Part shown: piece by piece, positions 16,017-60,556 of the stretch
How positions within the stretch are numbered: the stretch's first letter is position 1
Layout: each line of letters begins with the position of its first letter
Assembly (NCBI GenBank): GCA_902616075.1
Contig: CACMRK010000001.1
Span: forward strand, 62,001 to 126,000
Source: an uncultured Alphaproteobacteria bacterium
Lineage (GTDB): Bacteria; Pseudomonadota; Alphaproteobacteria; HIMB59; GCA-002718135
Length of the DNA: 64,000 nt
Reading direction: 5' to 3'
The notes under the pieces: model-generated
Seen by the model: the letters and a program-made list of their open reading frames with translations, nothing else
The model's database searches: none
What the model was told of the DNA's origin: nothing
Program-made: the position numbers and the translations under genes

Positions 16017-17687
16017 CTATTTTAAGAAATTTATTATTGCATTCTTAATATCATTAACAAGATTTTTATTTTCATCTTTAGTTAATTGACTTTCATTTTT
16101 TTTCTTATCAAGTTTTAACTTTCTTTGAGCTAAAATATTTGCAACATAATCATAAACATTAGGATTTTTAGAAAATATATCTTTTATTATATCCTTGCTT
16201 ACTTTTATAACTATGCAAGGAGTTTCAGCTATAACATTAGCGGATCTGGGTTCACCGGTAAGAAGACTGCCTTCACCAACAAAGTCTCCAACACCAAGTT
16301 TTGCTAAAAATACTTTATCTTTATTTTCATTATCTAAGTAAACAGATACTACTCCGTCATTTATAACGTAAAGAGAATCTCCAGAATCATTTTGTTTAAT
16401 AATGTAATCGTCTTTTTCAAAATGGAGTCTTTCAGCGTTTTCAGCAATTTCATCTAAATCTTCAGAATTTAAAGACATAAAAATAGGAATTTTTTGGAGT
16501 AGGACTCTATTTTTTATTGACTCATTATAAGGATTAAATTCACTAACCTGTCTTTTTTCAAAATCTTCTCTAATTCTATGTGTATCAAGAGCATGAAGTC
16601 CTGTATCTTCTCCAAGTTTCCCATAAAGTTTTCCAGCAGACATTTGAACACCTGCATGTCTTAAAGTTTTATGTATTTCCATCATAACACTATCTTGCAT
16701 CGAATTTTTTAAAATTCTTTTTGTGCAATCAAACGCAACAACAAATTCTAATCCAAATTCATTAGCACCTATAAAACGAACCCACTGTAAATTTAATTGC
16801 TCTCTACCATCAACGGGTTTTGCTTTTTTAAGAGCATTATAAAGTAATTTAGAAATATTTTCTGGGTCATGAGATGGATGAAAATATAATTTATTAAAAA
16901 TATGAAATCCTTCACTCATTTTTTCTTTATCTTGTTTGCTCCAATTAGTTAAAATTGAATCTGCAACGATTTCATTTGGAATGATTACTTCAGTATTCTG
17001 AAATGTTCTTATTCTTGTACTTCTCCAGGTAATATTTTCTACATAACCTGTTTTATCATCAACAGTAATCCAATCGTTTATTGCAAACGGTCTCTCAATA
17101 TTTACAAAAATTCCTTTAATTAAATCTGATAAGCTTGATTGTAAAGAAAGTGCAATAGCAGCAAAAACTATACCACCTGCAGCAAGTATACTTGTAAGTT
17201 CTAAATTAAAAACAAAGGATAAAACTAAAAATGCAGGTATCGCAAATAATAAAAACTGAAAAAGAAATGTTATTATCTCAGGTATTGTTGTTCCTGATTT
17301 ATTATTTAGTGACAATACTTCGTATTTATAAAACATCATTATAAATATTGATGGAATAAAATATAAAGTTATCAGTAAGATTTTATCTGTAAGGTTACTT
17401 ATAGTTTCATTAATTAAAACAAATTCCTTTTGAATAACTATATCATAGGAAAAAAGTACCATTAGATATGATAAAATTGGAAGTATAATGATAGTAAATA
17501 GTACTCGTGTAAATTTCTTTAATTTATTAAGTCGTATTACAGAGACAATAATAAATACAGAAATGAGTATATATAAAGAATTTAAAGTAACTGCATTATT
17601 ATAAAATAGCAGAATAGATAAGATACATAACAAGGATATTAAAATTATGCTTATCTTAGAAAGTAGATAAAAAATGTTAATTTTCAT
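16017..17687 (-). CDS. MscS-type channel with C-terminal cyclic-nucleotide-binding domain
   Basis: 556 residues. Several hydrophobic spans fill the first 190 residues. The MscS pore helix and beta domain follow (LAAGGIVFAAIALSLQSSLS, then VNIERPFAINDWITV). The last ~150 residues are a cNMP-binding domain (DDYIIKQNDSGDSLYVINDG, then GDFVGEGSLLTGEPRSANV, with the phosphate-binding Glu and Arg of the family). This is the architecture of bacterial cyclic-nucleotide-gated (bCNG) channels. It is divergent from a K+ channel gene and 0.8 kb from a class III cyclase, so cAMP may control it. Ion selectivity cannot be read from sequence. Confidence 0.9.
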   Translation of the reverse strand: MKINIFYLLSKISIILISLLCILSILLFYNNAVTLNSLYILISVFIIVSVIRLNKLKKFTRVLFTIIILPILSYLMVLFSYDIVIQKEFVLINETISNLTDKILLITLYFIPSIFIMMFYKYEVLSLNNKSGTTIPEIITFLFQFLLFAIPAFLVLSFVFNLELTSILAAGGIVFAAIALSLQSSLSDLIKGIFVNIERPFAINDWITVDDKTGYVENITWRSTRIRTFQNTEVIIPNEIVADSILTNWSKQDKEKMSEGFHIFNKLYFHPSHDPENISKLLYNALKKAKPVDGREQLNLQWVRFIGANEFGLEFVVAFDCTKRILKNSMQDSVMMEIHKTLRHAGVQMSAGKLYGKLGEDTGLHALDTHRIREDFEKRQVSEFNPYNESIKNRVLLQKIPIFMSLNSEDLDEIAENAERLHFEKDDYIIKQNDSGDSLYVINDGVVSVYLDNENKDKVFLAKLGVGDFVGEGSLLTGEPRSANVIAETPCIVIKVSKDIIKDIFSKNPNVYDYVANILAQRKLKLDKKKNESQLTKDENKNLVNDIKNAIINFLK

Positions 17688-17721
17688 TTTGTAATTTTTA
17701 CTATAAAGAATTTATATAAAA

Positions 17722-18465
17722 ATGAATTCATTTTCAAAGTATTTATTCGAACACTTACATTTTGGTCTAGAAGAGAAGGATTTTACATTAATTGAAAAAA
17801 TTATATTCTTTCTTATTATATTGAACTGTGTTTTTGTTGTTATTGAGTCAGAAAAACTAATTTATGAGCAATATCATCAGCTCTTTGACTCTGCAAAAAT
17901 TTTTTTTGGTATAGTATTTTTAATTGAATATATTTGTAGATTAATTGCCGTAGATCAAATTGATAAATTTAAAGGATTTAATGGCAAGATAAAGTATATT
18001 TTTACAGTACCTGCTCTAATTGACGCAATTGCACTTATTCCATTATTTTTAATTGGTATTAATGAAGGTTTCTTAGTAAGGTTGTTAAGAGCTATTAGAA
18101 TATTTAGTATTCTTCGTTTTGGGCGTTTTAGTGAGTCAGTAGATTTTATACTTCATGCAATATATGACAGAAGACATGAATTAATATTCTCACTTCTGAT
18201 TACTTTAAGTTTAATGTTATTGTCCGCAACTTTACTTTATGTTGTAGAAGGGGATTTGCAACCAGAAGCTTTTGGGTCGATCCCAAGATCTCTTTGGGTT
18301 AGTTCTGCTGCTTTATTGTCAACTGGTTATGGTGATTATACACCAATTACATTTTTAGGAAGGTTTGCTGCAGTCTGTACAGCTTTATTTGGAATTGGAG
18401 CAGTTGCTTTACCAGCTGGTATACTGGCTAGTGCTTTTACTGAGAAAAAAAGAAAAAATGATTAA
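17722..18465 (+). CDS. Voltage-gated potassium channel (six-TM, Kv-like)
   Basis: 247 residues. It has six membrane spans, an Arg-rich S4 segment (RLLRAIRIFSILRFGRF) and a K+ selectivity filter STGYGD near residue 200, between the last two spans. The second filter residue is Thr rather than the more common Val. A short basic tail follows, with no cytoplasmic ligand-binding domain. It is divergent from the MscS/cNMP channel (34 bases between starts) and overlaps the end of the cyclase gene tail-to-tail by 4 bases, so the three genes form a compact cluster. Confidence 0.9.
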   Translation: MNSFSKYLFEHLHFGLEEKDFTLIEKIIFFLIILNCVFVVIESEKLIYEQYHQLFDSAKIFFGIVFLIEYICRLIAVDQIDKFKGFNGKIKYIFTVPALIDAIALIPLFLIGINEGFLVRLLRAIRIFSILRFGRFSESVDFILHAIYDRRHELIFSLLITLSLMLLSATLLYVVEGDLQPEAFGSIPRSLWVSSAALLSTGYGDYTPITFLGRFAAVCTALFGIGAVALPAGILASAFTEKKRKND

Positions 18466-20291
18466 GCAGTTTTTTCCACAATTTTTATATTAGGAAACAT
18501 TTTATTAGAAAATTCTAAAAGATTAGTATGTTTTGAATCTTCTGGTCTAAAATGCATATTATGTATTGTTTTTTCCCAATTTGTTTCTTTAAAATCACTT
18601 TCATATTTTTTGTAAATGTTATGTTCTTTAACTTTACTAATGTCATCATTTTTAGAAATAGAATATAAAATTGTTAACCAAGTTGAAGCGCTCATGTATT
18701 GTATTTTTTCTCCCCAAGAGATGCATTTTTCAAAATCTTCTTTACAAAAATAACCTATTGTTAATGCATCGTAGCGCGAACATGATGTTGCAGCACCTTG
18801 AGGAATTGGATCAAGTTCTAATGCTTTGTGAAGATGCTTTAATCCCTCATCAACACTATCAAGTTTAACTAGGCATGTGCCATATCTATCTAAAATCCTA
18901 GGATCATTAGGATTAATGGAGTGTCCTTTCTTGGCATGCTCAATTGATTTATTAAAATCTTTATTACTTTGCGCAATTGCAGAAGAAATTCTTAATACTT
19001 CAAAATCATTTTCATCAGCCTCAAGACTTTTCTTGACGTGTTCAAGACCCATATCCATCATCTTATCTGGATCTTCATAATAACCTTTGCCGTATCCACC
19101 ACCAATAGTACATGCTTTTAAGGCATGTGCTCTTGCATTCGTTTCATCGGTTTCAATTGCCTTGTTAAGTGCTTCAATAGCTTTTAAATTATTTTCTTTT
19201 CCAGATCGAACATGATGATAAGTTCCTTTTATTAACCATTCATAAGAATTTAAATTTTCTGATGGTTTTCTTTTAATCCTTTGTAAGCTACTTATTTCAA
19301 TATTACCAAGTAATTGTCGAGACATTTTCATTACGATTTCATCTTGTAAATCAAAAATATCTTCTATTACTCTATCGTATTTTTCACCCCATAAATTGGA
19401 ACCATCGCTAGCATCAGTTAAGTCAACACTAACTCTTATTCTTTTGCCAGCAGAACGAATATTGCCACCAATTAAATAATCAACTAAGTGTTTTTTTGCA
19501 AATCCAAGTGCGTCTTCATCACTTTTTTTAAAATCCATCGATGTTTGATGTGAAAGTATTTCAAATTCTTGCATTCGCGAAAATTCTTGTATTAAATCTC
19601 TAAATACTCCTTCTACTAAAAATTCTGAATCTTCATCTTTACTTAAATTTTCAAAAGGAAGAATTGCTAGTTTAATTTTTTTTGCTTTATTGATTTTAGT
19701 TTGAGCTATTGGTTCTTTAATATTATCGTTTGTTGGTTTTTCTTCCTCTGTTAAAAAATCATCTTCATGAATAAGTAAATTAGAAATTTTATAAACCTCA
19801 AAACTTTCACTTATATTTTTTAAATTTCTCGTGCCATCATTTTCAATTTTAGCATCTAACCTTTTATTAACTTGATCCTTAACAATAGTAGAAATTAAAA
19901 TTCCTCCTGGCTCACATTCGCTTTCTAGTCTAGCTGATACATTAACTCCTGAACCCATTATATTATCACCTTCAACTATTACATCATCTACATGTATTCC
20001 AACTCGCCATTCTAATTTTAATTCTGTAATAGAATGATCATTTCTTTTATAAATTTCATTTTGAAATTCTATTGCTGCCTTTAAGCAATTTACAGGTGAA
20101 GCAAACTCACACACAACACTATCACCCTCAGTTTTAAATATTCTTCCTCCAAATTCTATGATTTTAGCATCTATTATTTTGCGACATTCATTTAAATTTC
20201 GAAGAGTTTTTTCTTCGCTTTCTTCCATATGTTTGCTAAAATTTACACAATCAGTTGCAAGAATAGTGGCTAATTTTCTATCAGAATTCAT
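18462..20291 (-). CDS. Class III adenylyl cyclase with TolB-like and TPR domains
   Basis: 609 residues, predicted soluble. A class III nucleotidyl cyclase domain covers residues 1-180: metal-binding Asp14 (ATDCVNFS) and Asp57 (KTEGDS), Lys53 at the position that favours ATP, and the transition-state pair Asn117/Arg121 (GVNVSARLES). A linker follows, then a TolB-N-like domain (LAILPFENLSKDED, LVDYLIGGNIR, GSNLWGEKYDR), then TPR-like repeats to the end. All expected catalytic residues are present, so cAMP production is likely. Predicted partner: the cNMP-domain channel at 16017-17687. Confidence 0.9.
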   Translation of the reverse strand: MNSDRKLATILATDCVNFSKHMEESEEKTLRNLNECRKIIDAKIIEFGGRIFKTEGDSVVCEFASPVNCLKAAIEFQNEIYKRNDHSITELKLEWRVGIHVDDVIVEGDNIMGSGVNVSARLESECEPGGILISTIVKDQVNKRLDAKIENDGTRNLKNISESFEVYKISNLLIHEDDFLTEEEKPTNDNIKEPIAQTKINKAKKIKLAILPFENLSKDEDSEFLVEGVFRDLIQEFSRMQEFEILSHQTSMDFKKSDEDALGFAKKHLVDYLIGGNIRSAGKRIRVSVDLTDASDGSNLWGEKYDRVIEDIFDLQDEIVMKMSRQLLGNIEISSLQRIKRKPSENLNSYEWLIKGTYHHVRSGKENNLKAIEALNKAIETDETNARAHALKACTIGGGYGKGYYEDPDKMMDMGLEHVKKSLEADENDFEVLRISSAIAQSNKDFNKSIEHAKKGHSINPNDPRILDRYGTCLVKLDSVDEGLKHLHKALELDPIPQGAATSCSRYDALTIGYFCKEDFEKCISWGEKIQYMSASTWLTILYSISKNDDISKVKEHNIYKKYESDFKETNWEKTIHNMHFRPEDSKHTNLLEFSNKMFPNIKIVEKTA

Positions 20292-20441
20292 TTATATTTT
20301 TTTAACTAATTTTAGATATTATTGCTACTAAAATGTGTCAACTTGAGTCAGAGAATCTAGACAAAATATTATATAGAGAATTTTACTAGTTTTTATGGTC
20401 GAAAATTTTAATTTGATTAATAATTCAACGAAGGAGAAAAT

Positions 20442-20846
20442 ATGATCGAAGCTTGGGGAGGTACTCTAAATCTAATTTTATACCTAATTAGTATGTTGGG
20501 TTTAGGATACTATGCGTTTCTTACAGTTTTAAGTCCTAATACATTAGTTACTCGATATGATTTAGGAGAAAAATCAGTTCCTATTATAAGAATTGTTGGA
20601 ACTTTTGTTTTGCCAATTTTAATTTTGGGAATTTATTTACTTTTTCGAGGACCTGAAGGTGCTTGGATTTTTCTTGTATTAAACTTTCTTGTTTCAACAC
20701 ATCAGGTAATTTTAGGCTGGGCTACTAGGTTTAAAATTATAGACCCTGATTCAAAGCAAGATGTTGGTGATGAGATAGTAGGGCATGTATTTGTTATTAT
20801 AGCAATTGTTCTGATCTACAGACTTTCTTATACAATATACGCTTAG
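20442..20846 (+). CDS. Small integral membrane protein, 134 aa
   Basis: Not recognised. Four hydrophobic spans separated by short loops, with a conserved-looking RGPEGAW loop. A strong Shine-Dalgarno sequence (GAAGGAG) precedes ATG 20442, and the gene is followed by a strong terminator, so it is a monocistronic and probably well-expressed unit. Function unknown. Confidence 0.8.
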   Translation: MIEAWGGTLNLILYLISMLGLGYYAFLTVLSPNTLVTRYDLGEKSVPIIRIVGTFVLPILILGIYLLFRGPEGAWIFLVLNFLVSTHQVILGWATRFKIIDPDSKQDVGDEIVGHVFVIIAIVLIYRLSYTIYA

Positions 20847-20853
20847 TTATATT

Positions 20854-20880
20854 AAGCTGGGATTTAAATCCCAGCTTTTT
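20854..20880 (+). terminator. Rho-independent terminator
   Basis: A perfect 12-bp inverted repeat, AAGCTGGGATTT / AAATCCCAGCTT (20854-20877), runs into a T tract. It lies just after the 20442-20846 gene and at the stop of the convergent peroxiredoxin-like gene. The T tract favours plus-strand termination. Confidence 0.88.
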
Positions 20881-21415
20881 ATCTTAATGAAAATTCTTTA
20901 ATTTCTGAAAATTCAAAACCATCAAAAGCATCTTTTTCAGAGTATTTAGATCTTATTACAACTCCTTCTTTATCAAGAAAGAAATCTGCAGTCATTATAT
21001 CTAAGTAGCCGCCAAGTTTAATAGGAATATAACCCTTGAGCATAGCAGAAAGTGCTTTTGGGAATTTAAAAATAAATGCATTCATTAATTTAGTCATTGA
21101 TCTATCAATTTCATATTTTTTGTAATAGGTAAAATCTGGATCAGCAAGAACTGTAAATGGAAGAGGTCCGTGTTTTTTCATTTGTTTATTTAAAAACTCA
21201 ACACTAGAATGAAATACTAAAACAATTTCAAAATCTTTTCCAAATTCACTATGTTTATTTTTTAAAAGATTAACTTCTAAATTACAAAACATACAAGAAG
21301 CAAATCTCATGTATTTTAAATATACTTTTTTTCCTTTAAAATTATTAAGATCAAAATCTGATCCATCCATTTTCTTTAATTTTAGTTCTGGTGCATCACC
21401 TTTTTTTATTTTCAT
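20879..21415 (-). CDS. Peroxiredoxin-like (AhpC/TSA, thioredoxin-fold) protein
   Basis: 178 residues with a thioredoxin-like fold: the N-terminal LKKMDGSDFDLNNFKGKKVYL segment, then FASCMFCNLEV with a CxxC pair near residue 41, and PFTVLADPDFTYYKKYEI as in AhpC/TSA proteins. A CxxC rather than a single peroxidatic Cys suggests a disulfide-handling or peroxide-reducing role. Cytoplasmic (no signal peptide). It ends at the terminator shared with the previous gene. Confidence 0.78.
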   Translation of the reverse strand: MKIKKGDAPELKLKKMDGSDFDLNNFKGKKVYLKYMRFASCMFCNLEVNLLKNKHSEFGKDFEIVLVFHSSVEFLNKQMKKHGPLPFTVLADPDFTYYKKYEIDRSMTKLMNAFIFKFPKALSAMLKGYIPIKLGGYLDIMTADFFLDKEGVVIRSKYSEKDAFDGFEFSEIKEFSLR

Positions 21416-21463
21416 ATTATAACATTAATACTATAATTACATAAAAAGTAATATTTAATTTTG

Positions 21464-21889
21464 ATGACATTAATAATAACACTAAAATTTATACACTACC
21501 TTGCAATTGTTTTTTCAGGTGGAGTTTTAGTTGGTGGTGGAGTAATTCAATCTGTTTATGCTAAAGCAAATCAAATTCCTGATTTAAATACAGCAAAGAT
21601 ATTGAAGTTACTTGGCTATATTGGTCTTATATCCCTAATTGTTTTATGGATATCCGGAATTGTACTATCAATTAATCTCTATGGCGGTTTTATAATTAAC
21701 AGTGCATTTACAATTAAAATAATTGCAGCAGGTATACTTTTAGGGTTGTCTACTTTTGTAAATTTTCATGTATTTAATTCCTCAAAAAATAATTTACCGC
21801 CAAATAAAACTATAATGAAAATAGCTACAATGAGTGGAAGAGGGTTACTGATAATAGTACTGATATCTGCTGCTATAGCTTTTTATTAA
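21464..21889 (+). CDS. Four-span membrane protein, CopD/DUF2269-like
   Basis: 141 residues, four hydrophobic spans. The first has KFIHYLAIVFSGGVLVGGG, with a His in a position like that of CopD- or HemJ-type membrane proteins. A second His (NFHVF) lies in the third span. The resemblance is only general, so the assignment is tentative. The frame opens at a TTG at 21461; I take the adjacent ATG at 21464. Confidence 0.6.
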   Translation: MTLIITLKFIHYLAIVFSGGVLVGGGVIQSVYAKANQIPDLNTAKILKLLGYIGLISLIVLWISGIVLSINLYGGFIINSAFTIKIIAAGILLGLSTFVNFHVFNSSKNNLPPNKTIMKIATMSGRGLLIIVLISAAIAFY

Positions 21890-21905
21890 ATTACATTATT
21901 ATATT

Positions 21906-22424
21906 TTATTTAAAAAATTCTTCTAATTTATTTAGAGAGCTTTCATTATTTAGAGTTTCATTAAAAATTTCCTCAACTAAATACTTTCCATCTTGAAACT
22001 CAGATATGAGAGTTAAAGTATAAGGTTTAATATCTGCACATATTTTTTGCCTATTTTTAGGATCTTTAACAATACCAGTAGTACATGAAACTAACCACTG
22101 CATTCGCATGTCACTAATATCAACATCATGTGTGGGAGTAATTTGAAGTTCATCTGTATGGTTTGTTATGAAAGTTTTATAAGTTTCACTATTAATTTTT
22201 GCATCGTTTAAAATATTAACTATTCTTTTACACTTTGATTTATCTCCATCTAAAACATGAACTACTGCGTTAATTCTTATATCTCGTACAATCGGTATTT
22301 CTCCAAAGCCAAAATATTGCATTCCACACATACAGACTCTATTCTCCACATCACAATTTCCAGCATTTGAGACATTAAAAAAGCTTAAGCATAGCAAAAC
22401 AATTAAAGAGTAAAAAATTTTCAT
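21906..22424 (-). CDS. Secreted hypothetical protein, 172 aa
   Basis: Not recognised. A clear signal peptide (MKIFYSLIVLLCLSFFNVSNA) with an AXA-like cleavage site, then a small domain with a cysteine-rich start (CDVENRVCMCG) and two more Cys pairs, which fits disulfides in the periplasm. It is preceded by an A+T-rich gap and by the integrase on the same strand, with the tandem 26-bp repeat in between. Confidence 0.7.
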   Translation of the reverse strand: MKIFYSLIVLLCLSFFNVSNAGNCDVENRVCMCGMQYFGFGEIPIVRDIRINAVVHVLDGDKSKCKRIVNILNDAKINSETYKTFITNHTDELQITPTHDVDISDMRMQWLVSCTTGIVKDPKNRQKICADIKPYTLTLISEFQDGKYLVEEIFNETLNNESSLNKLEEFFK

Positions 22425-22462
22425 ATATTTTCTTTAAATATTGTTACTAATAATAAGAAAAT

Positions 22463-22514
22463 ATTTAAATTTAATAGTTATAATTTTTATTTAAATTTAA
22501 TAGTTATAATTTTT
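22463..22514. repeat. Tandem direct repeat, 2 x 26 bp, at the integrase 3' end
   Basis: Two perfect adjacent copies of a 26-bp unit (22463-22488 and 22489-22514) that begins ATTTAAATTTAATAGTTATA. The second copy overlaps the last codons and stop of the integrase gene. It could be a simple duplication or a recombination site used by the integrase. Confidence 0.85.
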
Positions 22515-23562
22515 TTGCTGCACTTGTCTCTTTAATATTTGTTAGCTTTGTATATCTATCTATCATTTGTGTTGTTTTATGACCACTTTGAGCCATAATT
22601 TCATGAGTGGGTACTCCATTCATTCTAGCCTGAGTAATTGAACCTATTCTTAGACTATGACCAGAAATTTTATCACAATTTTCTATGCCTGCGTCTTCGG
22701 CTCTTTTCTTTAAAATTAAAACAAAACTTGTGTCAGTCAAACTTACTTTTTGATTTTTATTATTAAGAATATATTTTTCTATATTGTTAGCTTTGTTAAT
22801 TTTATAAAAGAGAGGACCTGAGTCAATTAATGCAACGTCTAACCAATTCTTTAACGCAGATACAGGACAATAAGGTGAGTTATTTTTAGGTAAATAGATC
22901 ATTCTCCCTTCACCTTTTTGATCAGTTTTAGAAAAAGGAATTAAAACCTGAACACCATCATCTTCAAAATTTAAATGCTCATATTTCATTCCTAACAATT
23001 CTGATCTTCTGCAAAAACTATAAAATCCAATTAATATTAGAGCTTTATCTCTTATGTTTCTAAAATCATCATTATCCTCTGGAATTTTATTAATTATTTT
23101 CTCAATATCTGCTTTCAAAAGCTCCTTTGCTTGACCAGATTTATTATTTCTTTCATCTCTTACAATTGCACTTATCGTTTCTGATATGTTGGGATTTTTT
23201 CTATCAAACTGAAAACCATTAATTCTATATTTATAAGTTATAGAGGCTAAAATTCTTTGTATAGTTGACGCTTTATAGGCTGATGAAGAGTAGGGGTTAT
23301 TATTTAACTTTTCTCTTCCTGGAATATTACTTGTTCCTTTCAATATTTTTGCTTCTGGATCTTCATGAAGCCAATCCATATAATTAGCAGTTAAAGCATA
23401 TGCACTTTCTAAATCATCAACATCTAATGGACTGCAATTGTATTTATTTTTGCAATAGTCGATAAATTTAAGCCAATCTCCGTTGTATTTGTCCTGAGTA
23501 TTCTTTGCCTTAGACTTTTCCTTTAATTTATTTACATTATCATTTAGTGATATTTTAACCAT
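22504..23562 (-). CDS. Tyrosine recombinase / integrase
   Basis: 352 residues of the phage-integrase family. A core-binding (SAM-like) N-terminal domain spans about residues 10-150, followed by the catalytic domain: Arg in FCRRSELLG, Lys in the KTDQKGEG hairpin, HSLRIG (His-x-x-Arg), SGHKTTQM (second His) and the Tyr nucleophile in MIDRYTK. All catalytic residues are present, so it should be active. An inverted repeat precedes it and a tandem repeat overlaps its 3' end. It borders the sirtuin and methyltransferase region, so it may have mobilised that segment; no tRNA lies beside it. Confidence 0.92.
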   Translation of the reverse strand: MVKISLNDNVNKLKEKSKAKNTQDKYNGDWLKFIDYCKNKYNCSPLDVDDLESAYALTANYMDWLHEDPEAKILKGTSNIPGREKLNNNPYSSSAYKASTIQRILASITYKYRINGFQFDRKNPNISETISAIVRDERNNKSGQAKELLKADIEKIINKIPEDNDDFRNIRDKALILIGFYSFCRRSELLGMKYEHLNFEDDGVQVLIPFSKTDQKGEGRMIYLPKNNSPYCPVSALKNWLDVALIDSGPLFYKINKANNIEKYILNNKNQKVSLTDTSFVLILKKRAEDAGIENCDKISGHSLRIGSITQARMNGVPTHEIMAQSGHKTTQMIDRYTKLTNIKETSAAKKL

Positions 23563-23570
23563 ATTATATA

Positions 23571-23594
23571 TTACGATAATTACAGTTATCGTAA
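23571..23594. promoter_or_regulatory. Operator-like inverted repeat upstream of the integrase
   Basis: Perfect 9-bp arms TTACGATAA (23571-23579) and TTATCGTAA (23586-23594) with a 6-base spacer, starting 9 bases upstream of the integrase ATG. The position would cover the ribosome-binding site or promoter, as expected for a repressor or autoregulatory site. The protein that would bind it is unknown. Confidence 0.6.
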
Positions 23595-23722
23595 ATAATA
23601 GTCAAGTAATAAATATAAATACTATAAATCAATAATTTATATATATAATCTAAATAGTTTCTAATATTACAAACTAGATATAGATTTTCACGTGTAATAA
23701 AATACTGTATATTGTGTATCAA

Positions 23723-24448
23723 ATGGAACAATTACCGCAGATTTCAGCTGATTCCCAGATCTTTGTATTAACGGGTGCTGGTATAAGTAAAGAGTCTGGG
23801 ATTGAAACATTCAGAGACTCTGATGGGCTTTGGAACAATCATAGGATTGAGGATGTTGCTAGTCCAAAAGGATTCTATAGAAACCCTACTCTTGTCTATG
23901 ATTTTTATAATAAACGCCGAAAAGAACTAAACTCAGGAATTAAGCCAAATAAGGCCCATATTTTACTGCATGAATTAGAAAAAATATATAAAATTCATAT
24001 AGTTACACAAAATATCGATAATTTGCATGAGATTGGAGGATCATCATCAATAATTCATATGCACGGTGAGCTAAACAAAGCGAGATGTATGATGAATGAT
24101 CATCATGTATTTGAATGGCTAGAGGACCTAAATGAGACCCATAAATGCCCTAAATGTAACTCTCAATTAAGACCTCATATCGTTTGGTTTGGAGAAATGC
24201 CAATGCAAATGGAAGAAATCCATGATTTAGCTGAGCAATCTAGTTTATTTGTCTCTATTGGGACTTCTGGAGAGGTCTACCCTGCTGCCGGCTTCGTTAC
24301 AATGTTCAAAGATATGAATAAACCAACTGTAGAATTAAATCTGGAACCATCACGTAATCAAAATCAATTTGATTTTGCTATTCATAAACCTGCTACAGTT
24401 GCTGTTGAAGAATTTAAAAACTTACTTTTAAAGAATTTAAAAAACTAA
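23723..24448 (+). CDS. cobB: NAD-dependent protein lysine deacylase (CobB-type sirtuin)
   Basis: Removes acetyl or succinyl groups from lysines using NAD. About 241 residues: NAD-binding GAGISKESGIETFRD, catalytic His in IIHMHGE, TQNIDNLH, a Cys pair CPKC, then IVWFGEMP and IGTSGEVYPAAGF. The Tyr and Arg of FYNKRR match those that give class III sirtuins (E. coli CobB, SIRT5) desuccinylase ability. It is very CobB-like along its whole length, so a housekeeping role is more likely than a phage-defence SIR2. A GTG at 23714 is an alternative start. Confidence 0.92.
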   Translation: MEQLPQISADSQIFVLTGAGISKESGIETFRDSDGLWNNHRIEDVASPKGFYRNPTLVYDFYNKRRKELNSGIKPNKAHILLHELEKIYKIHIVTQNIDNLHEIGGSSSIIHMHGELNKARCMMNDHHVFEWLEDLNETHKCPKCNSQLRPHIVWFGEMPMQMEEIHDLAEQSSLFVSIGTSGEVYPAAGFVTMFKDMNKPTVELNLEPSRNQNQFDFAIHKPATVAVEEFKNLLLKNLKN

Positions 24449-24544
24449 TTTATTCACGTTATTAAATTTTTTTAAATAAAAAATTTTTAATTGTAAATTA
24501 TCAATAATTTTAGAAAAAAAAATTTTATATAATCTAATAATATT

Positions 24545-24703
24545 TTAAATCTTAGATTTGTTTAAAGAAGTTTTTTTTTTATTTTTTAATTTTTTTTTCA
24601 TTTTTTTCAAATTTTTACTTTGTTTACCAAAACTAATTGTATCAATTTCTTTTGGCAAACCTAGTTTTTCCCATTCTTCCAAACTAATTTTTTTTATTGT
24701 CAA
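24545..24703 (-). CDS. Small basic protein, 52 aa, TTG start
   Basis: A TTG codon (24701-24703) with a good AGGAG six bases upstream opens a 53-codon frame. The protein starts MTIKKISLEEWEKLGLPKEI and ends in a run of lysines (KKMKKKLKNKKK). Not recognised. The Shine-Dalgarno sequence and non-repetitive N-terminal half argue for a real gene. A Lys-rich tail is also what A-rich noncoding DNA would give. It lies in the 439-base gap between the sirtuin and the methyltransferases, divergent from the latter. Confidence 0.45.
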   Translation of the reverse strand: MTIKKISLEEWEKLGLPKEIDTISFGKQSKNLKKMKKKLKNKKKTSLNKSKI

Positions 24704-24766
24704 TTTACACTCCTAATAGCTTTATATATGCCCATGTAAGTTAAGTATATAAGTTATGAATTTTTA

Positions 24767-24810
24767 TTATAAACAAACATTCAAATGTGTTTATAATTAG
24801 TTTATAAACA
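24767..24810. promoter_or_regulatory. Operator-like repeats upstream of the methyltransferase operon
   Basis: Three copies of one 9-mer: TTATAAACA (24767-24775), its inverse TGTTTATAA (24788-24796) and TTATAAACA again (24802-24810). The third is part of the 10-bp palindrome GTTTATAAAC (24800-24809). The cluster lies about 78 bases before the first methyltransferase start. The layout resembles operators of controller proteins in restriction-modification systems, but no controller gene is recognised here. Apart from the small minus-strand frame, the rest of the 24449-24887 gap shows nothing else. Confidence 0.45.
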
Positions 24811-24887
24811 TCTAATTTTGTAAATAATCTATATAAATAAAATTTAATTAAATATTAAATGAATTTATTTATATACTTATCAAATTT

Positions 24888-25679
24888 ATGTTTAAGATAT
24901 TCAATAAAAATTCACAAAAAATGAAAGAATTAGAAGATGAGTCTATTGATTTAGTAGTAACTTCACCTCCATACTATTCCTTAAAAGATTATAAAGTAAA
25001 AAAACAAATAGGATTAAATCAAAATTATAAAAAATATACTGAATCACTAAATAAAGTTTGGACAGAGTGTATAAGAGTATTAAAGCCAGACGGGAAATTA
25101 TGTATAAATATTATGCCCTTATTTGATAGTGGTGTAAATAATAAAAAAAAAATAAAAAGAAGAATAACAAAAATACAATTAGACGAAATCACATCTTTTA
25201 TGGAAGCTTCAAACGAAATGTTTTTATTATCTTTGTATATTTGGGATAAGAGAAAAATTGCAAGATTTAGTTCTTTTGGAAGCTACCCATATCCAACAAA
25301 TATTTTTTCAACTTACCCATATGAATGGATAATTGTATATTCAAAATATGGAAAAAGAATTAAGCCGTCTGATGAAATCAAAAAAAAATCTAAATTAACA
25401 CAAAAGGAATGGGCTCAATATGCAATAAACTCAATATGGGAAATGAATCCAGCTAAAGCGAAAGATATAGGCCATCCTGCCCCTTTTCCTGAAGAATTAC
25501 CAAGAAGAATTATTAAACTCCATAGTTTTTATGGAGACAAAGTACTAGATCCATTTTGTGGTTCTGGAACAACATTAAAAGTAGCGGAGGAATTAGGAAG
25601 AGATAGTGTTGGTTACGAAATTAATAAGGATTATATTAAATTAGCAAAAAAAAGATTAGCTCAAATTAATTTATTGTGA
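24888..25679 (+). CDS. Site-specific DNA methyltransferase 1 (N4-cytosine or N6-adenine)
   Basis: 263 residues. Motif IV TSPPYYSLKDY comes near the N-terminus (residues 25-35), and motif I DPFCGSGTT near residue 220, with the following GYE acidic position. This is the permuted (beta-type) motif order. SPPY is frequent in N4-cytosine enzymes but also occurs in N6-adenine ones. The central part (YPYPTNIFSTYPYEWIIVYSKYG) is typical of type II modification enzymes. Its stop overlaps the GTG start of the second methyltransferase (GTGA), implying translational coupling in a five-gene operon. Confidence 0.9.
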   Translation: MFKIFNKNSQKMKELEDESIDLVVTSPPYYSLKDYKVKKQIGLNQNYKKYTESLNKVWTECIRVLKPDGKLCINIMPLFDSGVNNKKKIKRRITKIQLDEITSFMEASNEMFLLSLYIWDKRKIARFSSFGSYPYPTNIFSTYPYEWIIVYSKYGKRIKPSDEIKKKSKLTQKEWAQYAINSIWEMNPAKAKDIGHPAPFPEELPRRIIKLHSFYGDKVLDPFCGSGTTLKVAEELGRDSVGYEINKDYIKLAKKRLAQINLL

Positions 25680-26731
25680 ATTTTTTATTTAAAAAATTAA
25701 ACAGTGTTAACAATCCAAAATCAGTTCATGGAATTTATCCATACAGAGGTAAAATTTCTGGTAAAGATGCAAGTTTAATAATAGAAGAAATAAACTCAAA
25801 ATTTAAAATCAAACAATTACTTGATCCGTTTTGTGGGACAGGAACAATAAATTTTGAATGTCAAAAAAAATTTATCAAAAACATAGGTATAGACCTCAAC
25901 CCAGTTGCTATTAATATTGCAAAGTCTAAAATAAATCAAAAAAATATAAAATTAGAATTAGAAAATTTTGAAAAAATTAAGAATAAATCTTTTAAAAAAA
26001 AAAATATTAAAGTTTCACCATTATTTCTTAAATATTTTCATAAAAATACAGCATATAGGATTTTTCAATACAATGAATATCTAGATGAAATGAACGATTA
26101 TATTAAAGGTTGTTATTTTGGGGCAATAGCACTCAGTGCTAGAGCGTGTAATCATTACAAATGGACTTCAAATATAGTTGGAAAAATTATAAAACCTTTT
26201 AATGAAATAGATTTTGATAAAATATTTTATCAAAAAATTATTAAACATCAAATTAAAACTAAAAAAATTTCAAAAATTAAATTAGCAAATTCTTTAGATA
26301 TTAACAAAGTAGTTTTAAAAAATAGTATCAACTGTGTTATTACAAGCCCTCCTTATTTCAATGCATTAGATTACAGTGCTTATCATAATCAATTTATTCT
26401 AGATTTATTAAAAATTAATAAAAAATCTTTAAAAAAAAATTTATTCCAAAGTTTAAAAGATTATGAAATCAATTTTATTGAGTTTTTTAAAAATTTAGAT
26501 AAAGTTTTAGATAAAAAATCACTTATTGTTTTCATAGTTGGTGGTACTAAGCGAAAGTATAAAACAAAGAATATATCCTTATCTGGATCAGAATTTTTTA
26601 TAAAGATTTCTCCTTTTAAATTAATTAATGTTTATAAAAGAAAATATACCAATACAACTAGTACAAATATTATTGATAAAATAAATAAAACTTCGAGAGA
26701 AGAAGAGATAATTGTATGGAAAAATTTTTAG
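25676..26731 (+). CDS. Site-specific DNA methyltransferase 2
   Basis: 351 residues, GTG start overlapping the previous stop by 4 bases. An N-terminal HGIYPYRGKIS segment is followed by motif I DPFCGTGTINFE (about residue 55), with GIDLNPVAI at the cofactor-binding acidic position. Motif IV TSPPYFNALDY comes late (about residue 220). The motif order is opposite to that of methyltransferase 1, so this is not a duplicate. Two different methyltransferases in one operon are usual when a recognition site is asymmetric and each strand needs its own enzyme. It overlaps the next gene by 16 bases. Confidence 0.88.
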   Translation: MNFLFKKLNSVNNPKSVHGIYPYRGKISGKDASLIIEEINSKFKIKQLLDPFCGTGTINFECQKKFIKNIGIDLNPVAINIAKSKINQKNIKLELENFEKIKNKSFKKKNIKVSPLFLKYFHKNTAYRIFQYNEYLDEMNDYIKGCYFGAIALSARACNHYKWTSNIVGKIIKPFNEIDFDKIFYQKIIKHQIKTKKISKIKLANSLDINKVVLKNSINCVITSPPYFNALDYSAYHNQFILDLLKINKKSLKKNLFQSLKDYEINFIEFFKNLDKVLDKKSLIVFIVGGTKRKYKTKNISLSGSEFFIKISPFKLINVYKRKYTNTTSTNIIDKINKTSREEEIIVWKNF

Positions 26732-27174
26732 ATCAAATAAGTCCCTTGCATTATCAAAATGATATAGATTTTTTTTTCATAGAAACTGATAAAAAAAAAT
26801 TAAAAGAAGATTATTTTTTACCCACAAATAATCTTAAGTTAAATTTGATTAGATATTTTGTTTATACACTAAAAAAAATTGTTATTTGTAAATATTATGA
26901 AAATTTTAATATTAAAAATATTAATAATGACAGATCAATAACTATGAAAAACTGTATCGAATATAAAAATAAATTTTTTTTAATCAATGTAATTACATCT
27001 AAAAATAATTTAATAGAAAAAATTAACTATGGAAATATCAATTTAAAAAAAAAAATTAAGCAGATTTTTATTTTATTGAATATAAAAAATGAATTATCCA
27101 ATGAAATGAAAGATTTAATAGAAATAAATAATCAATATAATATAAATTGTTATTATGACAAACTTACCAAATAG
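26716..27174 (+). CDS. Unrecognised protein of the methyltransferase operon, 152 aa
   Basis: Not recognised. Rich in Lys, Asn and Ile, with no membrane span, no signal peptide and no clear motif. Pattern of strands and helices: KNKFFLINVITSKNN is strand-like and INLKKKIKQIFILLNI helix-like. It overlaps the preceding methyltransferase by 16 bases and the next gene by 20, so it is clearly part of the same transcript and probably a subunit or accessory protein of the system. Confidence 0.7.
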   Translation: MEKFLDQISPLHYQNDIDFFFIETDKKKLKEDYFLPTNNLKLNLIRYFVYTLKKIVICKYYENFNIKNINNDRSITMKNCIEYKNKFFLINVITSKNNLIEKINYGNINLKKKIKQIFILLNIKNELSNEMKDLIEINNQYNINCYYDKLTK

Positions 27175-28447
27175 AAGCAATTATGGTTATCTGAATTGTA
27201 TCTATTCAATATGGAAATCAAGGTATAATAACGATTTAGAAAATTTAAATATTTTAGATTTAAAATATAATAAAAGCTTTGAAAATAATTCAATAGATTA
27301 TTGTAGAGGTGCAAAAAATTATAATAATAAACTTACAGAAAATAGATTAGGTAGGAAAAAATACTGCCCTTTTTTAGTAGACAATACAGCTGCCCATGTT
27401 TGTAATTTAGTTTACGCAAAAGATTCAGATTCACAAAAATCTAAACCTGCAGGTCAAACTGCACTCATATTATCAATTTTAGATTTAGTAAAATTGAATT
27501 ATTCTGGTGATAAAGTTATATCTTTTAATTGGAATTCTAAAAACTCAAAATATTTAAAATTAAATTGGGGTGATGAAAAACTTAATAAATATTTATTAAC
27601 TAAAATTTTAGAATTTGGACCAATAATTGGTCTAATTAAATTAATAAAAAATAAAGTATCAAAAAATAAATTCAATAAATCAGATATTACTCAATTTGTT
27701 GGCTTTGCTAATTTTACTTGTTCAAAAAAAATTAAAGAATTTTGTGAAATTACTAATTGTAATAAAAAAAACCTTAATTTGACTATTAACATTGGCAATA
27801 CATCAAATGATGCAAAAACTAGAACTTTAAAAACATTATTATTATTGCTAGCACATACAAACATTATTAGCCCAATTGATAGTGATCAAAAATTTCAAAA
27901 ACCAATTATCGATTTTGATAATTGGTTATTCTCAAAAGATAATTTTAATAAAATTTCAAATAAATGGATTTTTAATGAAAAATTATTTGAAAAATTAATA
28001 AAGAAAAATAAAGATTTTAAAATTAAAAAAACTATTGAGTATCGCCACTTAGACCCTAAAGCAGTACATAGAAATGCAACTGATAAATGTGATATTTGTA
28101 ATCAAAATATTAAAAATAAATTTAAAAGTAAATATTCAGATATTCTCAAATTAAGAAGATATACTTTAATAAAAATGTTCTCTATGTCTTTTAAAAACAA
28201 AATAACAATTAAGAAAGAAAAAATACATCAATTTTTTTCAAATAATAATTACTACATTACAAAAAACTATAAATTTGAATTAAATGCTGAAATTGATTTT
28301 ATTGATTTTATTACTGGTTGTTTTTTAATCAATAATAATGATAATTTAATACCTTCTTTAGACATAACTGAAATTGATTTAGGGAACATCAAAAATGTAA
28401 ATGAAATTAATAAAAAAATTAATAAATTTTTTAAATATGATAATTGA
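27155..28447 (+). CDS. Unrecognised Cys-containing protein of the methyltransferase operon, 430 aa
   Basis: Not recognised. Visible elements: scattered cysteines in the first 100 residues (DYCRGAKNY, KKYCPFL, AHVCNLVYAKD) and a CDICNQN pair near residue 313 preceded by YRHLDPKAVHRNATDKC, which could form a zinc site. It lacks helicase, P-loop or methyltransferase motifs. It may be the DNA-recognition or second endonuclease subunit; this is inferred only from its position between methyltransferases and a nuclease. It overlaps both neighbours. Confidence 0.75.
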   Translation: MTNLPNRSNYGYLNCIYSIWKSRYNNDLENLNILDLKYNKSFENNSIDYCRGAKNYNNKLTENRLGRKKYCPFLVDNTAAHVCNLVYAKDSDSQKSKPAGQTALILSILDLVKLNYSGDKVISFNWNSKNSKYLKLNWGDEKLNKYLLTKILEFGPIIGLIKLIKNKVSKNKFNKSDITQFVGFANFTCSKKIKEFCEITNCNKKNLNLTINIGNTSNDAKTRTLKTLLLLLAHTNIISPIDSDQKFQKPIIDFDNWLFSKDNFNKISNKWIFNEKLFEKLIKKNKDFKIKKTIEYRHLDPKAVHRNATDKCDICNQNIKNKFKSKYSDILKLRRYTLIKMFSMSFKNKITIKKEKIHQFFSNNNYYITKNYKFELNAEIDFIDFITGCFLINNNDNLIPSLDITEIDLGNIKNVNEINKKINKFFKYDN

Positions 28448-29240
28448 TAACTTAGTAAACACTAAACAAAAAAAATTATATATAGAGGATTTTTTATTGT
28501 TTTGTGAACAAGATAAAATTATTCAACAAAAAGAACTAATTTGTAGGAGAAACGCTATTGAAAACGAAACTTATAATTTACCATTCTCAAATATTAATTT
28601 AAATAAATGTGATTACTGTCTTAGTTGTTTCGATAATAAATTATTAAGTTTTTACGAGGAGAAAATTTTAAATTTTGAAGTTAATTCAGATGTATTAAAT
28701 TATATTTGTGAAAAATATTCTAATTATGAGACAACTGAAACTACTCCTTTAGCTGCCAATTTAATTATAAATATGTTGAATAATAAAAAAAATATTTATT
28801 CAAGATTCTCTCCTTTTTGTGAGACAAATATTGAATCAACTTTTGATAGAGATGGTAAATTAGATATTGTAATATTGGATAAAAAAAATAAAAAAGGAAT
28901 AATTCTAGAATGTAAAAAAAATGCAAAAGCATTATCAAGAGATATTCATAGAGATCAATACAATAAATATAATCCAAAAATAAAAGAATTAGAAAAAAAA
29001 TATAATTATAATCTTTTTTTTGGATACATAATTGGAGGTAATGAAAATTTATTGGATAAAAATTCAAATAACTTTAATAATTCAATCAAAATTCAAAATT
29101 ATTTAGAAAATAAAAATTTTATCTCATTAAAATTCTTATTATTTGCTTATATAAATTTTTTGAAGGGAGATAAAAATTTTTTTTTAGAAAAAATTTTTAA
29201 TAATAATTTTAAACATTATCTTTATTCATATTTTAATTAG
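28437..29240 (+). CDS. Predicted PD-(D/E)XK restriction endonuclease subunit
   Basis: About 267 residues from ATG 28437 (an upstream ATG at 28401 would add 12 residues inside the previous gene). Nuclease signature near residues 135-160: FDRDGKLDIVILDKKNKKGI followed by ILECKKNAKAL, i.e. an acidic residue on one strand and E-x-K on the next, as in PD-(D/E)XK enzymes. A possible zinc site CDYCLSC lies in the N-terminal part. It is the last gene of the methyltransferase operon. Calling it the restriction nuclease is an inference from the motif and the context. Confidence 0.72.
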   Translation: MIIDNLVNTKQKKLYIEDFLLFCEQDKIIQQKELICRRNAIENETYNLPFSNINLNKCDYCLSCFDNKLLSFYEEKILNFEVNSDVLNYICEKYSNYETTETTPLAANLIINMLNNKKNIYSRFSPFCETNIESTFDRDGKLDIVILDKKNKKGIILECKKNAKALSRDIHRDQYNKYNPKIKELEKKYNYNLFFGYIIGGNENLLDKNSNNFNNSIKIQNYLENKNFISLKFLLFAYINFLKGDKNFFLEKIFNNNFKHYLYSYFN

Positions 29241-29353
29241 ATTAAGAAAATAATTTATTTAAAATTTTATTTTTATAATTAATCATAATTTGTTAATTTA
29301 CTTGATAAATTTTATTAAAATTTAAGAAATAGTAGTAGAACAAATAAAAGTAT

Positions 29354-40102: not shown

Positions 40103-41809
40103 TTAATACATAAAATAACGTTGAGCTAAAGGTAGTGTTTCAGCTGGCTCACAGGTAATTAATTCACCATCTGCTAAAACTTCATAAGTTTCTGGATTCA
40201 CTTCTATTTTCGGACAATAATCATTTAACATCATATCTTTTTTAGAAATTTTTCTAATATTTTTTACGGGTAACAGAGATTTACTTACTCCAGAGTTTTT
40301 AAATGATTCTTTATCTAAAGAAACTTTACTTACAAAAGTAACAGTAGATTTTTCTAATGATTTTCCAAAAGAAGAAAACATTGGTCTAGAATATACTGGT
40401 TGAGGTGTTGGAATAGAAGCATTTGGATCACCCATTTGTGCTGAAGCAATACTTCCGCCTTGTAATACCATTTCAGGTTTAACTCCAAAGAAAGCAGTGT
40501 CCCAAATAACAATATCAGCACGTTTATTTTTTTCGATACTTCCAATATGATCAGAAATACCATGTGCTATTGCAGGATTAATTGTATATTTAGCAATGTA
40601 TCTTTTAACTCTTACATTGTCGTTATTACCCTGCTCTTCTTTTAATTGTCCCCGTTGAACTTTCATTTTATGTGCTGTTTGCCATGTTCTAATAATAACC
40701 TCTCCAACACGACCCATGGCCTGACTATCAGAAGCAATTATTGAAAAAGCACCCATGTCATGCAGTATATCTTCCGCTGCAATTGTTTCCTTTCGAATTC
40801 GACTTTCAGCAAAAGCAACGTCTTCAGGTATTGATTTATCTAAGTGATGGCAAACCATTAACATATCTAAATGTTCTTCAACTGTATTAACTGTGTATGG
40901 TCTTGTTGGATTTGTAGATGACGGAATAACATACTGTTCTCCACATACTTTAATTATATCCGGTGCATGACCCCCACCAGCTCCTTCAGTATGAAAAGCG
41001 TGAATTGTTCGTCCATTAATTGCTTTAATTGTACTTTCAACAAATCCACTTTCATTTAACGTATCTGTATGAATCATTACTTGAATGTCATGATCATCAG
41101 CTACATTTAAACAATTATCTATTGCTGCTGGGGTTGTGCCCCAATCTTCATGCAATTTTAAGGAACTTGCACCAGCAATTACTTGTTCTTCAAGTGCTTT
41201 TGGCAATGAACTATTTCCTTTACCAGCAAAAGCCAAGTTCATAGAAAAAGCATCTGCTGATTGTATCATTTTCTCTATATGCCATGGTCCAGGTGTAACT
41301 GTAGTTGCTAAAGTACCATGAGCAGGGCCAGTTCCACCTCCCAACATTGTTGTGATACCTGAATGAAGTGCATCATCTATTTGCTGAGGACAAATAAAAT
41401 GTATATGACTATCAAATCCGCCAGCTGTTATAATTTTGCCTTCACCAGCAATTATTTCTGTTCCAGGCCCAATAATAATATTTACATTTGGTTGTGTATC
41501 TGGATTACCCGCTTTTCCAATTTCATTAATTAAACCATCTTTAAGACCAATATCAGCTTTATAAATTCCATTTACATCAACAATTAAAGCGTTTGTTATA
41601 ACTGTATCAACAGCACCGTCTTTGCGAGATACTTGAGATTGCCCCATTCCATCTCGAATAACTTTTCCTCCACCAAATTTTACTTCTTCTCCATATGTTG
41701 TTAAATCTTTTTCCACTTCAATAAAAAGTTCAGTGTCAGCAAGTCTGACTTTATCACCAGTTGTTGGTCCATACATATCGGCATAAGCTTCTCTTTTTAT
41801 TTTTTTCAT
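40103..41809 (-). CDS. ureC: Urease subunit alpha (catalytic)
   Basis: 568 residues, the normal size. Hydrolyses urea to ammonia and carbamate. Nickel ligands and active-site residues visible: HIHFI, the carbamylated Lys in SLKLHEDWG (about residue 217), [21 protein letters not shown], and the flap Cys/His in MVCHHLD (about 319), then the Asp in [10 protein letters not shown]. No residue appears missing, so the enzyme should be active. It overlaps ureB by one base (the G of TGATG-type junctions). Confidence 0.98.
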
Positions 41810-60488: not shown

Positions 60489-60545
60489 GATCCGCGTTCC
60501 TTCAGCTTTAGCCTACTTCCGATCTGTTAATACAGATTGAACGAT
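60489..60545 (-). promoter_or_regulatory. glnA-type glutamine riboswitch aptamer, copy 2 (gene-proximal)
   Basis: Read on the minus strand: ATCGTTCA opens P1 and pairs with GAACGCGGAT at the end. P2 is ATCTG/CAGAT. The conserved core CGGAAGTAGG is followed by a small hairpin (GGC-TAAA-GCT) and CTGAAGGAACGC. Layout and core match the glnA RNA motif known to bind L-glutamine. It lies 11 bases downstream of the first copy and about 124 bases before the ATP-grasp start. The 60366-60714 gap otherwise holds only the leader region and about 100 bases with no visible feature. Confidence 0.85.
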
Positions 60546-60556
60546 TTAATAACTTG

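What the first reader, a model, noticed from the sequence alone, without database searches (positions are those of the whole stretch)
24888..29240. Five-gene operon with two different DNA methyltransferases, two unknown proteins and a PD-(D/E)XK nuclease
Successive genes overlap by 4, 16, 20 and 11 bases, implying one co-translated complex. The two methyltransferases have opposite motif order (SPPY early versus late), so they are not duplicates and may each methylate one strand of an asymmetric site. The 152- and 430-residue proteins match nothing I recognise; the latter has possible zinc sites. There is no helicase, so it is not BREX, DISARM or type I/III. The operon is even more A+T-rich than its surroundings and sits beside an integrase. 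It may be a new restriction or defence arrangement.
Basis: partly seen in the sequence, partly recalled or inferred. Interest (0 to 1): 0.75.

Follow-up and report, generated by a model that had tools for sequence, protein, structure and literature searches.

The report
Split FokI-like restriction system, five genes
This looks like a restriction system in which the DNA-reading half and the DNA-cutting half of a FokI-type enzyme are made as separate proteins, with a small third protein and two protective methylases; the same gene set turns up in scattered bacteria and archaea, but the cutting part is not recognised by the gene catalogues that were checked.

Summary
In detail: five overlapping + strand genes at 24888-29240, two DNA methyltransferases of opposite motif order, then proteins of 152, 430 and 267/279 residues. 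The unknown proteins do have relatives. Of 26 loci with a close M1 (53-66% identical; one duplicated), 25 have M2 beside it, 19 have relatives of the downstream genes and 15 have all three complete. The 430-residue protein is modelled as a FokI recognition region without cleavage domain (VIA Z 16.5; next other entry 6.5). The last protein keeps a PD-(D/E)XK site, resembles BspD6I/FokI cleavage domains (Z 9.4-8.1) and has invariant CxxCxxC; in relatives a ferredoxin-type CxxCxxCxxxC sits on this subunit in eight loci and on the small subunit in six others. [quoted passage not shown] Methylase pairs without the downstream genes occur in archaea and in a phage contig, as expected if the pair alone protects. 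New variant of a known kind; site, cleavage and metal untested.

The parts
24888..25679 (+). P1 (M1): DNA methyltransferase, 263 aa, SPPY motif early and DPFCGSGT late (beta-type order)
   Evidence: Pfam N6_N4_Mtase E 3.4e-49; PDB relatives include PvuII and MboIIA methylases; motif positions; relatives 53-66% identical in 26 loci
25676..26731 (+). P2 (M2): DNA methyltransferase, 351 aa, DPFCGTGT early and SPPY late
   Evidence: Pfam N6_N4_Mtase 5.7e-9, D12 class 1.9e-6; motif positions; homologue in 25 of 26 loci, 35-44% identical
26716..27174 (+). P3: small subunit, 152 aa; relatives show R-x-x-(K/R)-(I/L)-(D/E) ... K, of which this copy has lost the acidic residue and the Lys; in Clostridia-type relatives preceded by a ferredoxin-type Cys module
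   Evidence: Profile A5 (17 rows, this one included): E 2.8e-18 for this copy, and matches in 17 other loci L012-L020, L022-L028, L091; alignments; no Pfam or PDB match for this copy
27155..28447 (+). P4: recognition subunit, 430 aa, FokI recognition-region fold without a cleavage domain; invariant C15, C50, C71, C83
   Evidence: Family A3; profile against PDB: the two FokI sequences only, E 0.025; AlphaFold2 model pLDDT 66.5, pTM 0.71; Foldseek FokI E 4.4e-5; VIA Z 16.5, 278 residues, rmsd 4.2, model 7-413 on FokI 13-379
28401..29240 (+). P5: cleavage subunit, 279 aa (or 267 aa from ATG 28437); E141 ... D155 ... E170-x-K172 ... Q186 x3 Y190 and C70xxC73xxC76 invariant (numbering from 28401)
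   Evidence: Family A4; model pLDDT 64.8, pTM 0.70; VIA best R.BspD6I small subunit Z 9.4, Nt.BspD6I 9.1, FokI 8.1; Cys positions
24489..29352 (.). Stretch not aligned in the sister genome G007, where other genes lie at this place: the operon with its short flanks is the variable cargo
   Evidence: blastn of window 15001-40000 to L110 (17.5 kb of G007): aligned up to 24488 and again from 29353

Best explanation
A Type II restriction-modification system whose endonuclease is a FokI/BspD6I-type enzyme split into separate polypeptides. P4 reads an asymmetric DNA site through FokI-like tandem winged helices; P5 carries the single intact PD-(D/E)XK site and cuts near it when docked on P4; P3 is a small, catalytically degenerate partner that I take to pair with P5 and hold it on P4. 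P5 (and in some lineages P3) carries a Cys module, most likely a [4Fe-4S] ferredoxin-type cluster in relatives, here CxxCxxC plus an upstream Cys that could bind Fe-S or Zn. P1 and P2 each methylate one strand of the site (both SPPY, so probably N4-methylcytosine; that link is recalled). Shown: gene set, co-occurrence, catalytic residues, Cys conservation, predicted folds of P4 and P5. Inferred: complex, subunit roles, methylation type, site, metal.
For: Co-occurrence: P2 with P1 in 25 of 26 loci, some or all of P3-P5 in 19 of 26, all three complete in 15; the four partial ones are cut by contig ends. L091 has the same P3-P5 as L017, so independent loci are 18 of 25 and 14. Gene order varies (P2-P1-P3-P4-P5; P2-P1 with P3-P5 convergent; P1-P3-P4-P5 with P2 convergent in L028), so linkage is kept through rearrangement. 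P4 fold: FokI far above other entries. P5 fold and residues: BspD6I/FokI-type cleavage domains. Pairs without P3-P5: whole genomes of L029-L034 have no P4 (0 of 6), and viral contig L092 has the pair between terminase genes. Fe-S: the P5 profile's 50 PDB matches (E 0.0034-0.96) are mostly complex I 23-kDa subunits, ferredoxins and other Fe-S proteins; Fer4-type Pfam models match up to 5 of 16 members at E <= 0.1; Clostridia-type P3 N-terminus matches Bacteroidota-type P5 N-terminus, hhalign probability 91 (modules) and 87 (full length; reversed P5 0.2).
Against: No activity is known for any member. Both models are middling (pLDDT 65-67); P5's Z 9.4-8.1 is only a little above the 7-8 that the tool calls usual for models without a clear match, and Foldseek's best E for P5 is 0.009 (BstEII). 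The Cys stretch of P5 is low-confidence in the model. P3 was not modelled and has no recognised fold; P3 and P5 cores are not significantly alike, and Clostridia-type P3 does not match Clostridia-type P5 (probability 0.9). The window copy lacks the fourth ferredoxin Cys, and its P4 and P5 are far from the others (24-29% and 20-35%). Six of 25 loci with both methylases have no P3-P5, so the link is one-way. Many carriers are metagenome-assembled genomes.
Confidence: 0.8

Rival explanations
1. Type IIT-like enzyme: P3 is a working second nuclease that cuts the other strand, as the small subunit of R.BspD6I does, so P3 and P5 make a heterodimeric cutter on P4.
For: P5's best structural match is that small subunit; P3 relatives keep R ... 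(D/E) ... K, in the register of P5's R-x-G-R-L-D ... E-x-K: acidic residue in 17 of 18 rows, Lys in 15 of 18.
Against: None of the 18 P3 rows has an acidic residue at the (D/E) of (D/E)XK, and the window copy has lost the other acidic residue and the Lys too; P3-P5 profile match not significant (probability 8.6).
Confidence: 0.15
2. P3 is not part of the endonuclease but a regulator or inhibitor that delays restriction until the genome is methylated.
For: Small and the least conserved member (one invariant residue).
Against: In six loci P3 carries the ferredoxin-type module that in eight others sits on P5, which suggests that P3 and P5 are one assembly; the Pfam scan of 17 members gave no DNA-binding regulator family.
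Confidence: 0.15
3. P4/P5 act only as a site-directed nickase or need two bound complexes; the biological output is nicking or slow degradation rather than ordinary restriction.
For: One intact catalytic site per set; Nt.BspD6I, a structural relative of P5, nicks on its own (PMC8533099, passages read).
Against: FokI makes double breaks after dimerising on DNA (PMC8533099, passages), so one site per chain is no bar.
Confidence: 0.15
4. The window copy is a relic kept for methylation only.
For: Very A+T-rich; P4 not found in 100 other related genomes, most of them incomplete; pairs alone persist elsewhere.
Against: All five frames are open far beyond chance, and P5's catalytic and Cys residues and P4's four Cys are intact.
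Confidence: 0.07

Closest known systems
FokI (Type IIS restriction endonuclease)
   Same: Recognition region matches P4 over FokI 13-379, Z 16.5; PD-(D/E)XK cleavage domain resembles P5, Z 8.1
   Different: FokI is one polypeptide; here recognition and cleavage are separate genes with a third protein and a Cys module. Recalled, not from a call: FokI's own methylase is a fused adenine-type enzyme, unlike P1 and P2
R.BspD6I / Nt.BspD6I (heterodimeric Type IIS/IIT)
   Same: Best structural match of P5 is the small subunit (Z 9.4), with the large subunit's C-terminal region tied (Z 9.1); a separate small subunit
   Different: BspD6I's large subunit both recognises and cuts (PMC4081073, PMC8533099, passages); P4 matches recognition regions only, P3 lacks the catalytic residues
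DndG / SspB / BrxA FokI-like winged-helix proteins
   Same: FokI-type DNA-binding module as a separate protein in restriction systems (PMC12839542 and PMC10853773, passages read)
   Different: Those belong to phosphorothioate or BREX systems with ATPases; no such genes here. SspB scores Z 6.0 against P4, FokI 16.5
BslI, NotI (Type II enzymes with Cys4 metal sites)
   Same: Metal held by cysteines in a Type II enzyme; BslI has two different subunits (PMC4081073, passages)
   Different: Zn or Fe in Cys4 structural motifs, not a ferredoxin-type motif; sequences not compared here
Plasmid methylases followed by a phospholipase-D-family gene (Methylobacterium indicum, Salipiger profundus)
   Same: Two adjacent methylases (M. 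indicum, both matching P2 weakly) or one long methylase protein (Salipiger, 34% to P1 over the match), then a possible nuclease gene
   Different: Different nuclease family; M. indicum second methylase only 25% identical to P2 over the alignment

Membership tests
Type II restriction-modification | Methyltransferase gene(s) with a linked nuclease gene, no ATPase/translocase | tested here: met
   two methylases, a PD-(D/E)XK candidate, no helicase or ATPase match among the five
Type II restriction-modification | Site-specific cleavage blocked by the cognate methylation | not testable with these tools
   No activity data; indirect support from pairs without P3-P5 in archaeal genomes and a phage contig
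Type IIS (FokI-like) | FokI-type DNA-recognition region | tested here: met
   P4 model: Foldseek E 4.4e-5, VIA Z 16.5; profile E 0.025
Type IIS (FokI-like) | PD-(D/E)XK cleavage domain with intact catalytic residues | tested here: met
   P5 invariant E141, D155, E170, K172, Q186, Y190; fold Z 9.4-8.1, modest
Type IIS (FokI-like) | Recognition and cleavage in one polypeptide (as in FokI itself) | tested here: not met
   P4 and P5 are separate genes in the window and in the 15 complete relatives
Type IIS (FokI-like) | Asymmetric site, cut at a fixed distance outside it | not testable with these tools
   Only indirect: two different methylases
Type IIT (two different catalytic sites) | A second, working catalytic site on another subunit | tested here: inconclusive
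   P3 motif degenerate but its fold is unknown
Iron-sulfur nuclease | Conserved cysteine motif of [4Fe-4S] type | tested here: inconclusive
   CxxCxxC in 17 of 17 P5 rows; CxxCxxCxxxC in 8 of 17 P5 rows and 6 of 18 P3 rows, in neither protein for the window and L028; Pfam Fer4 matches in a minority of members
BREX, DISARM, Type I/III | Helicase/translocase ATPase subunit | tested here: not met
   None among the five genes

The most novel reading that the evidence does not exclude
The first naturally three-part FokI: a recognition protein, a cleavage protein and a pseudo-nuclease held together by a movable [4Fe-4S] module that sits on one subunit in some phyla and on its partner in others, so that the enzyme cuts only while the cluster is intact (a redox- or iron-gated restriction endonuclease).
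Probability: 0.25. Interest if true: 0.75.

Novelty: new variant of a known kind. Interest (0 to 1): 0.58.

Why it matters
FokI's cleavage domain is the basis of zinc-finger nucleases, and in FokI it is fused to its reader. A natural enzyme with reader, cutter and helper on separate chains would show how the parts dock, and could supply a cutter recruited by a separate protein. A ferredoxin-type cluster in a Type II restriction enzyme would be unusual: the 2014 review of Type II enzymes speaks of Zn, or less often Fe, in Cys4 structural motifs, and the word 'iron' does not occur in its held text (PMC4081073, passages read). P3-P5 and the nine relatives scanned have no match above a curated cut-off in Pfam or NCBIfam and none in PADLOC up to E 1, so surveys based on these libraries would miss the endonuclease.

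Tried and rejected
Single-protein searches with P4, P5, P2 and P1 found no relatives in viral contigs, nor P4 in genome contigs, plasmids or phages, nor P5 in plasmids; relatives of the R genes appeared only after aligning P1 with plasmid homologues. The single protein P4 in 398 genomes of the phylum gave three weak matches besides its own (E 0.008-0.024), two with stop codons inside and one open (G436); none was pursued. P2 gave none besides its own at 1e-8. The P4 profile in 345 genomes around G506 matched only the centre genome.

Cas4/RecB-type nuclease for P5: the E...D...ExK...QxxxY pattern suggested it (pattern recalled), but the structure search listed BspD6I, BstEII and FokI first; Cas4 not being listed excludes nothing. 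P3 as a full paralogue of P5: only the Cys module matches, and only between lineages. Integrase as the operon's own mobility gene: rejected, its counterpart in the sister genome lies beside other genes. Recognition site from literature: searches for a methylome of a relative's host (Clostridium tyrobutyricum) listed none that I could use (10 of 166 and 10 of 414 papers listed).

Dropped from counts: 56 of 80 genome loci and 4 of 6 viral loci, with P1 identity of 46% or less; in them the P4 and P3 profiles gave no match and the P5 profile only E 0.0023 (L081) and 0.042 (L074). L091 has the same P3-P5 as L017 and was left out of alignments A3-A5.

On print: listings for Fe-S, split or three-subunit Type II enzymes showed no such system; 48, 52 and 64 listed only 15 of 20, 15 of 64 and 12 of 23 papers. 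Most subscription papers are not held and REBASE was not searchable, so this is weak evidence of absence.
Full report
Observation. The five + strand ORFs, their sizes and overlaps are as described. In 500 Markov sequences of the same dinucleotide make-up the longest + strand open frame was 115 codons, so frames of 152 to 430 codons are real genes. G+C is 20.8% against 27.4% for the window; P1 alone is at the window's level.

Identity of single proteins. P1 and P2 are DNA methyltransferases with opposite motif order. P3 and P4 match no family in Pfam, NCBIfam or PADLOC; P5 has only sub-threshold Pfam matches, among them HSDR_N_2 and PDDEXK_11. P4 is missing from the host's relatives that were searched: 0 of 100 others, most of them incomplete (13 of 101 are at least 90% complete). 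Two phylum samples, 398 genomes with the single protein and 345 around G506 with the profile, gave no strong match besides the window's and the centre's own.

Relatives. They fall in two groups: 24 + 2 loci at 53-66% identity to P1 and the rest at 46% or less. In the close group P2 is present in 25 of 26 loci. Profiles of P3, P4 and P5 find some or all of these genes in 19 of 26 loci, all three complete in 15; the other four (L011, L018, L020, L021) end at contig ends. L091's P3-P5 are identical to L017's, so independent loci are 18 of 25 and 14. Carriers by record title include Clostridia, Bacteroidota, a Nealsonbacterium, a gammaproteobacterium, an Aenigmatarchaeon and a Poseidoniaceae archaeon; many are metagenome bins, where contigs can be misassigned. 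Whole-genome search of the 24 genomes found P4 once in each of 17 and not in seven: those of L021 and L029-L034.

Arrangements. In the Bacteroidota-type loci the order is P2-P1-P3-P4-P5; in Clostridia-type loci P2-P1 face P3-P4-P5 convergently; in L028 (Poseidoniaceae) the order is P1-P3-P4-P5 with P2 convergent (the type names are mine). L029 (Euryarchaeota UBA462) and L030 (Poseidoniales) have P1 and P2 facing each other with nothing between; L032-L034 (Thorarchaeota) have P2-P1 alone; L031 has only P1. Viral contig L092 has P2-P1 between genes matching terminase small and large subunits. Pairs kept without P3-P5, above all in a phage, are what one expects if P1+P2 protect DNA against P3-P5.

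P4. Family A3 (17 members) has invariant C15, C50, C71 and C83. Its profile matches only the two FokI sequences in the PDB, E 0.025. The AlphaFold2 model (pLDDT 66.5, pTM 0.71) matches FokI with Foldseek E 4.4e-5, the next entry 0.45, and VIA Z 16.5 over 278 residues, model 7-413 on FokI 13-379; the next other entry scores 6.5. Nt.BspD6I (6.0), SspB (6.0) and the BpuJI binding domain (5.2) are also listed, below the level at which Z means much. The match stops before FokI's cleavage domain (boundary recalled). Nine of 17 members weakly match Pfam AAA_assoc_C. FokI-type winged-helix modules as separate proteins are described in Dnd, Ssp and BREX systems (PMC10853773, PMC12839542, passages), so the separation as such has precedents, though not in a two-methylase Type II setting that I found.

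P5. Family A4 (16 members) keeps E141, R150, D155, E170, K172, Q186, Y190 and C70, C73, C76. The model (pLDDT 64.8, pTM 0.70) matches R.BspD6I small subunit Z 9.4, BstEII 9.2, Nt.BspD6I 9.1 and FokI 8.1, all restriction enzymes; but these Z values are modest, and Foldseek's best E is 0.009. The Cys stretch is low-confidence in the model (residues 40-92 below 50).

Metal module. In one search's 17 P5 rows every one has CxxCxxC and another Cys 12-25 residues upstream; eight have the ferredoxin-type CxxCxxCxxxC. Six of 18 P3 rows (Clostridia-type, L091 included) carry CxxCxxCxxxC in an N-terminal extension that the others lack. The two N-termini match each other (hhalign probability 91 for the modules; 87 with full-length P3 and P5, against 0.2 with reversed P5). 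Clostridia-type P3 does not match Clostridia-type P5 (0.9), nor Bacteroidota-type P3 either P5 type (0.2). The P5 profile's 50 PDB matches are mostly complex I 23-kDa subunits, ferredoxins, sulfite reductases, ABCE1 and other proteins known for Fe-S clusters, though weak (E 0.0034-0.96), and Pfam Fer4-type models match up to 5 of 16 P5 members and up to 2 of 17 P3 members at E 0.1 or better. The window copy and L028 have neither full motif; these two instead share an extra Cys-containing insert in P4 (window C312, C315). So Fe-S is likely for the family, open for the window.

P3. Only R73 is invariant. Of 18 rows 17 keep an acidic residue and 15 the Lys of a PD-(D/E)XK-like pattern, none has the second acidic residue, and the window copy has neither acid nor Lys. 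Clostridia- and Bacteroidota-type P3 cores match each other (probability 93). Comparison with P5 is not significant (8.6), so 'degenerate nuclease partner' is a hypothesis.

Rates. P1 is 53-64% identical to the window's in the 26 loci, P2 35-44% in 25, P4 24-29% and P5 20-35% where compared. Methylases held constant while the endonuclease diverges fits a fixed recognition site; this is inference.

Genome context. Of sister genome G007, the stretch L110 aligns with window 17322-24488 (88 and 79% identity) and again from 29353 (89%), and holds other genes (PBP, rhodanese, fasciclin-domain and others) in place of the operon, with a nearby gene moved. The operon is therefore variable cargo, and the integrase and Sir2 genes have counterparts in a genome that lacks it at this place and in which P4 was not found (G007 is about 59% complete).

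Verdict. A new variant of a known kind: a Type II system of FokI/BspD6I type with recognition, cleavage and a small third subunit encoded apart, and a Cys module found on different subunits in different lineages. Biochemistry is untested.

Noticed in passing
window 41377-41656 (+): Rfam 5_ureB_sRNA (RF02514) match, 96.6 bits. The family is described from Helicobacter as antisense to ureB (recalled), so this may reflect a conserved urease coding sequence on the other strand rather than an sRNA.
   Followed up: no
window 60491-60612 (-): Two glutamine riboswitch aptamers in tandem, 11 bases apart.
   Followed up: no
L092:2153-9981: A viral contig carries the P2-P1 methylase pair between terminase small and large subunit genes, with two further methylase genes on either side: a likely self-protection cassette.
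   Followed up: partly
L010:4411-6909: Salipiger profundus plasmid gene for a long protein that appears to hold two methylase regions, followed by a phospholipase-D-family gene.
   Followed up: no
L110:7550-12862: In the sister genome the operon's place holds other cargo and a neighbouring oxidoreductase gene has moved, suggesting a variable spot beside the integrase and Sir2 genes.
   Followed up: partly
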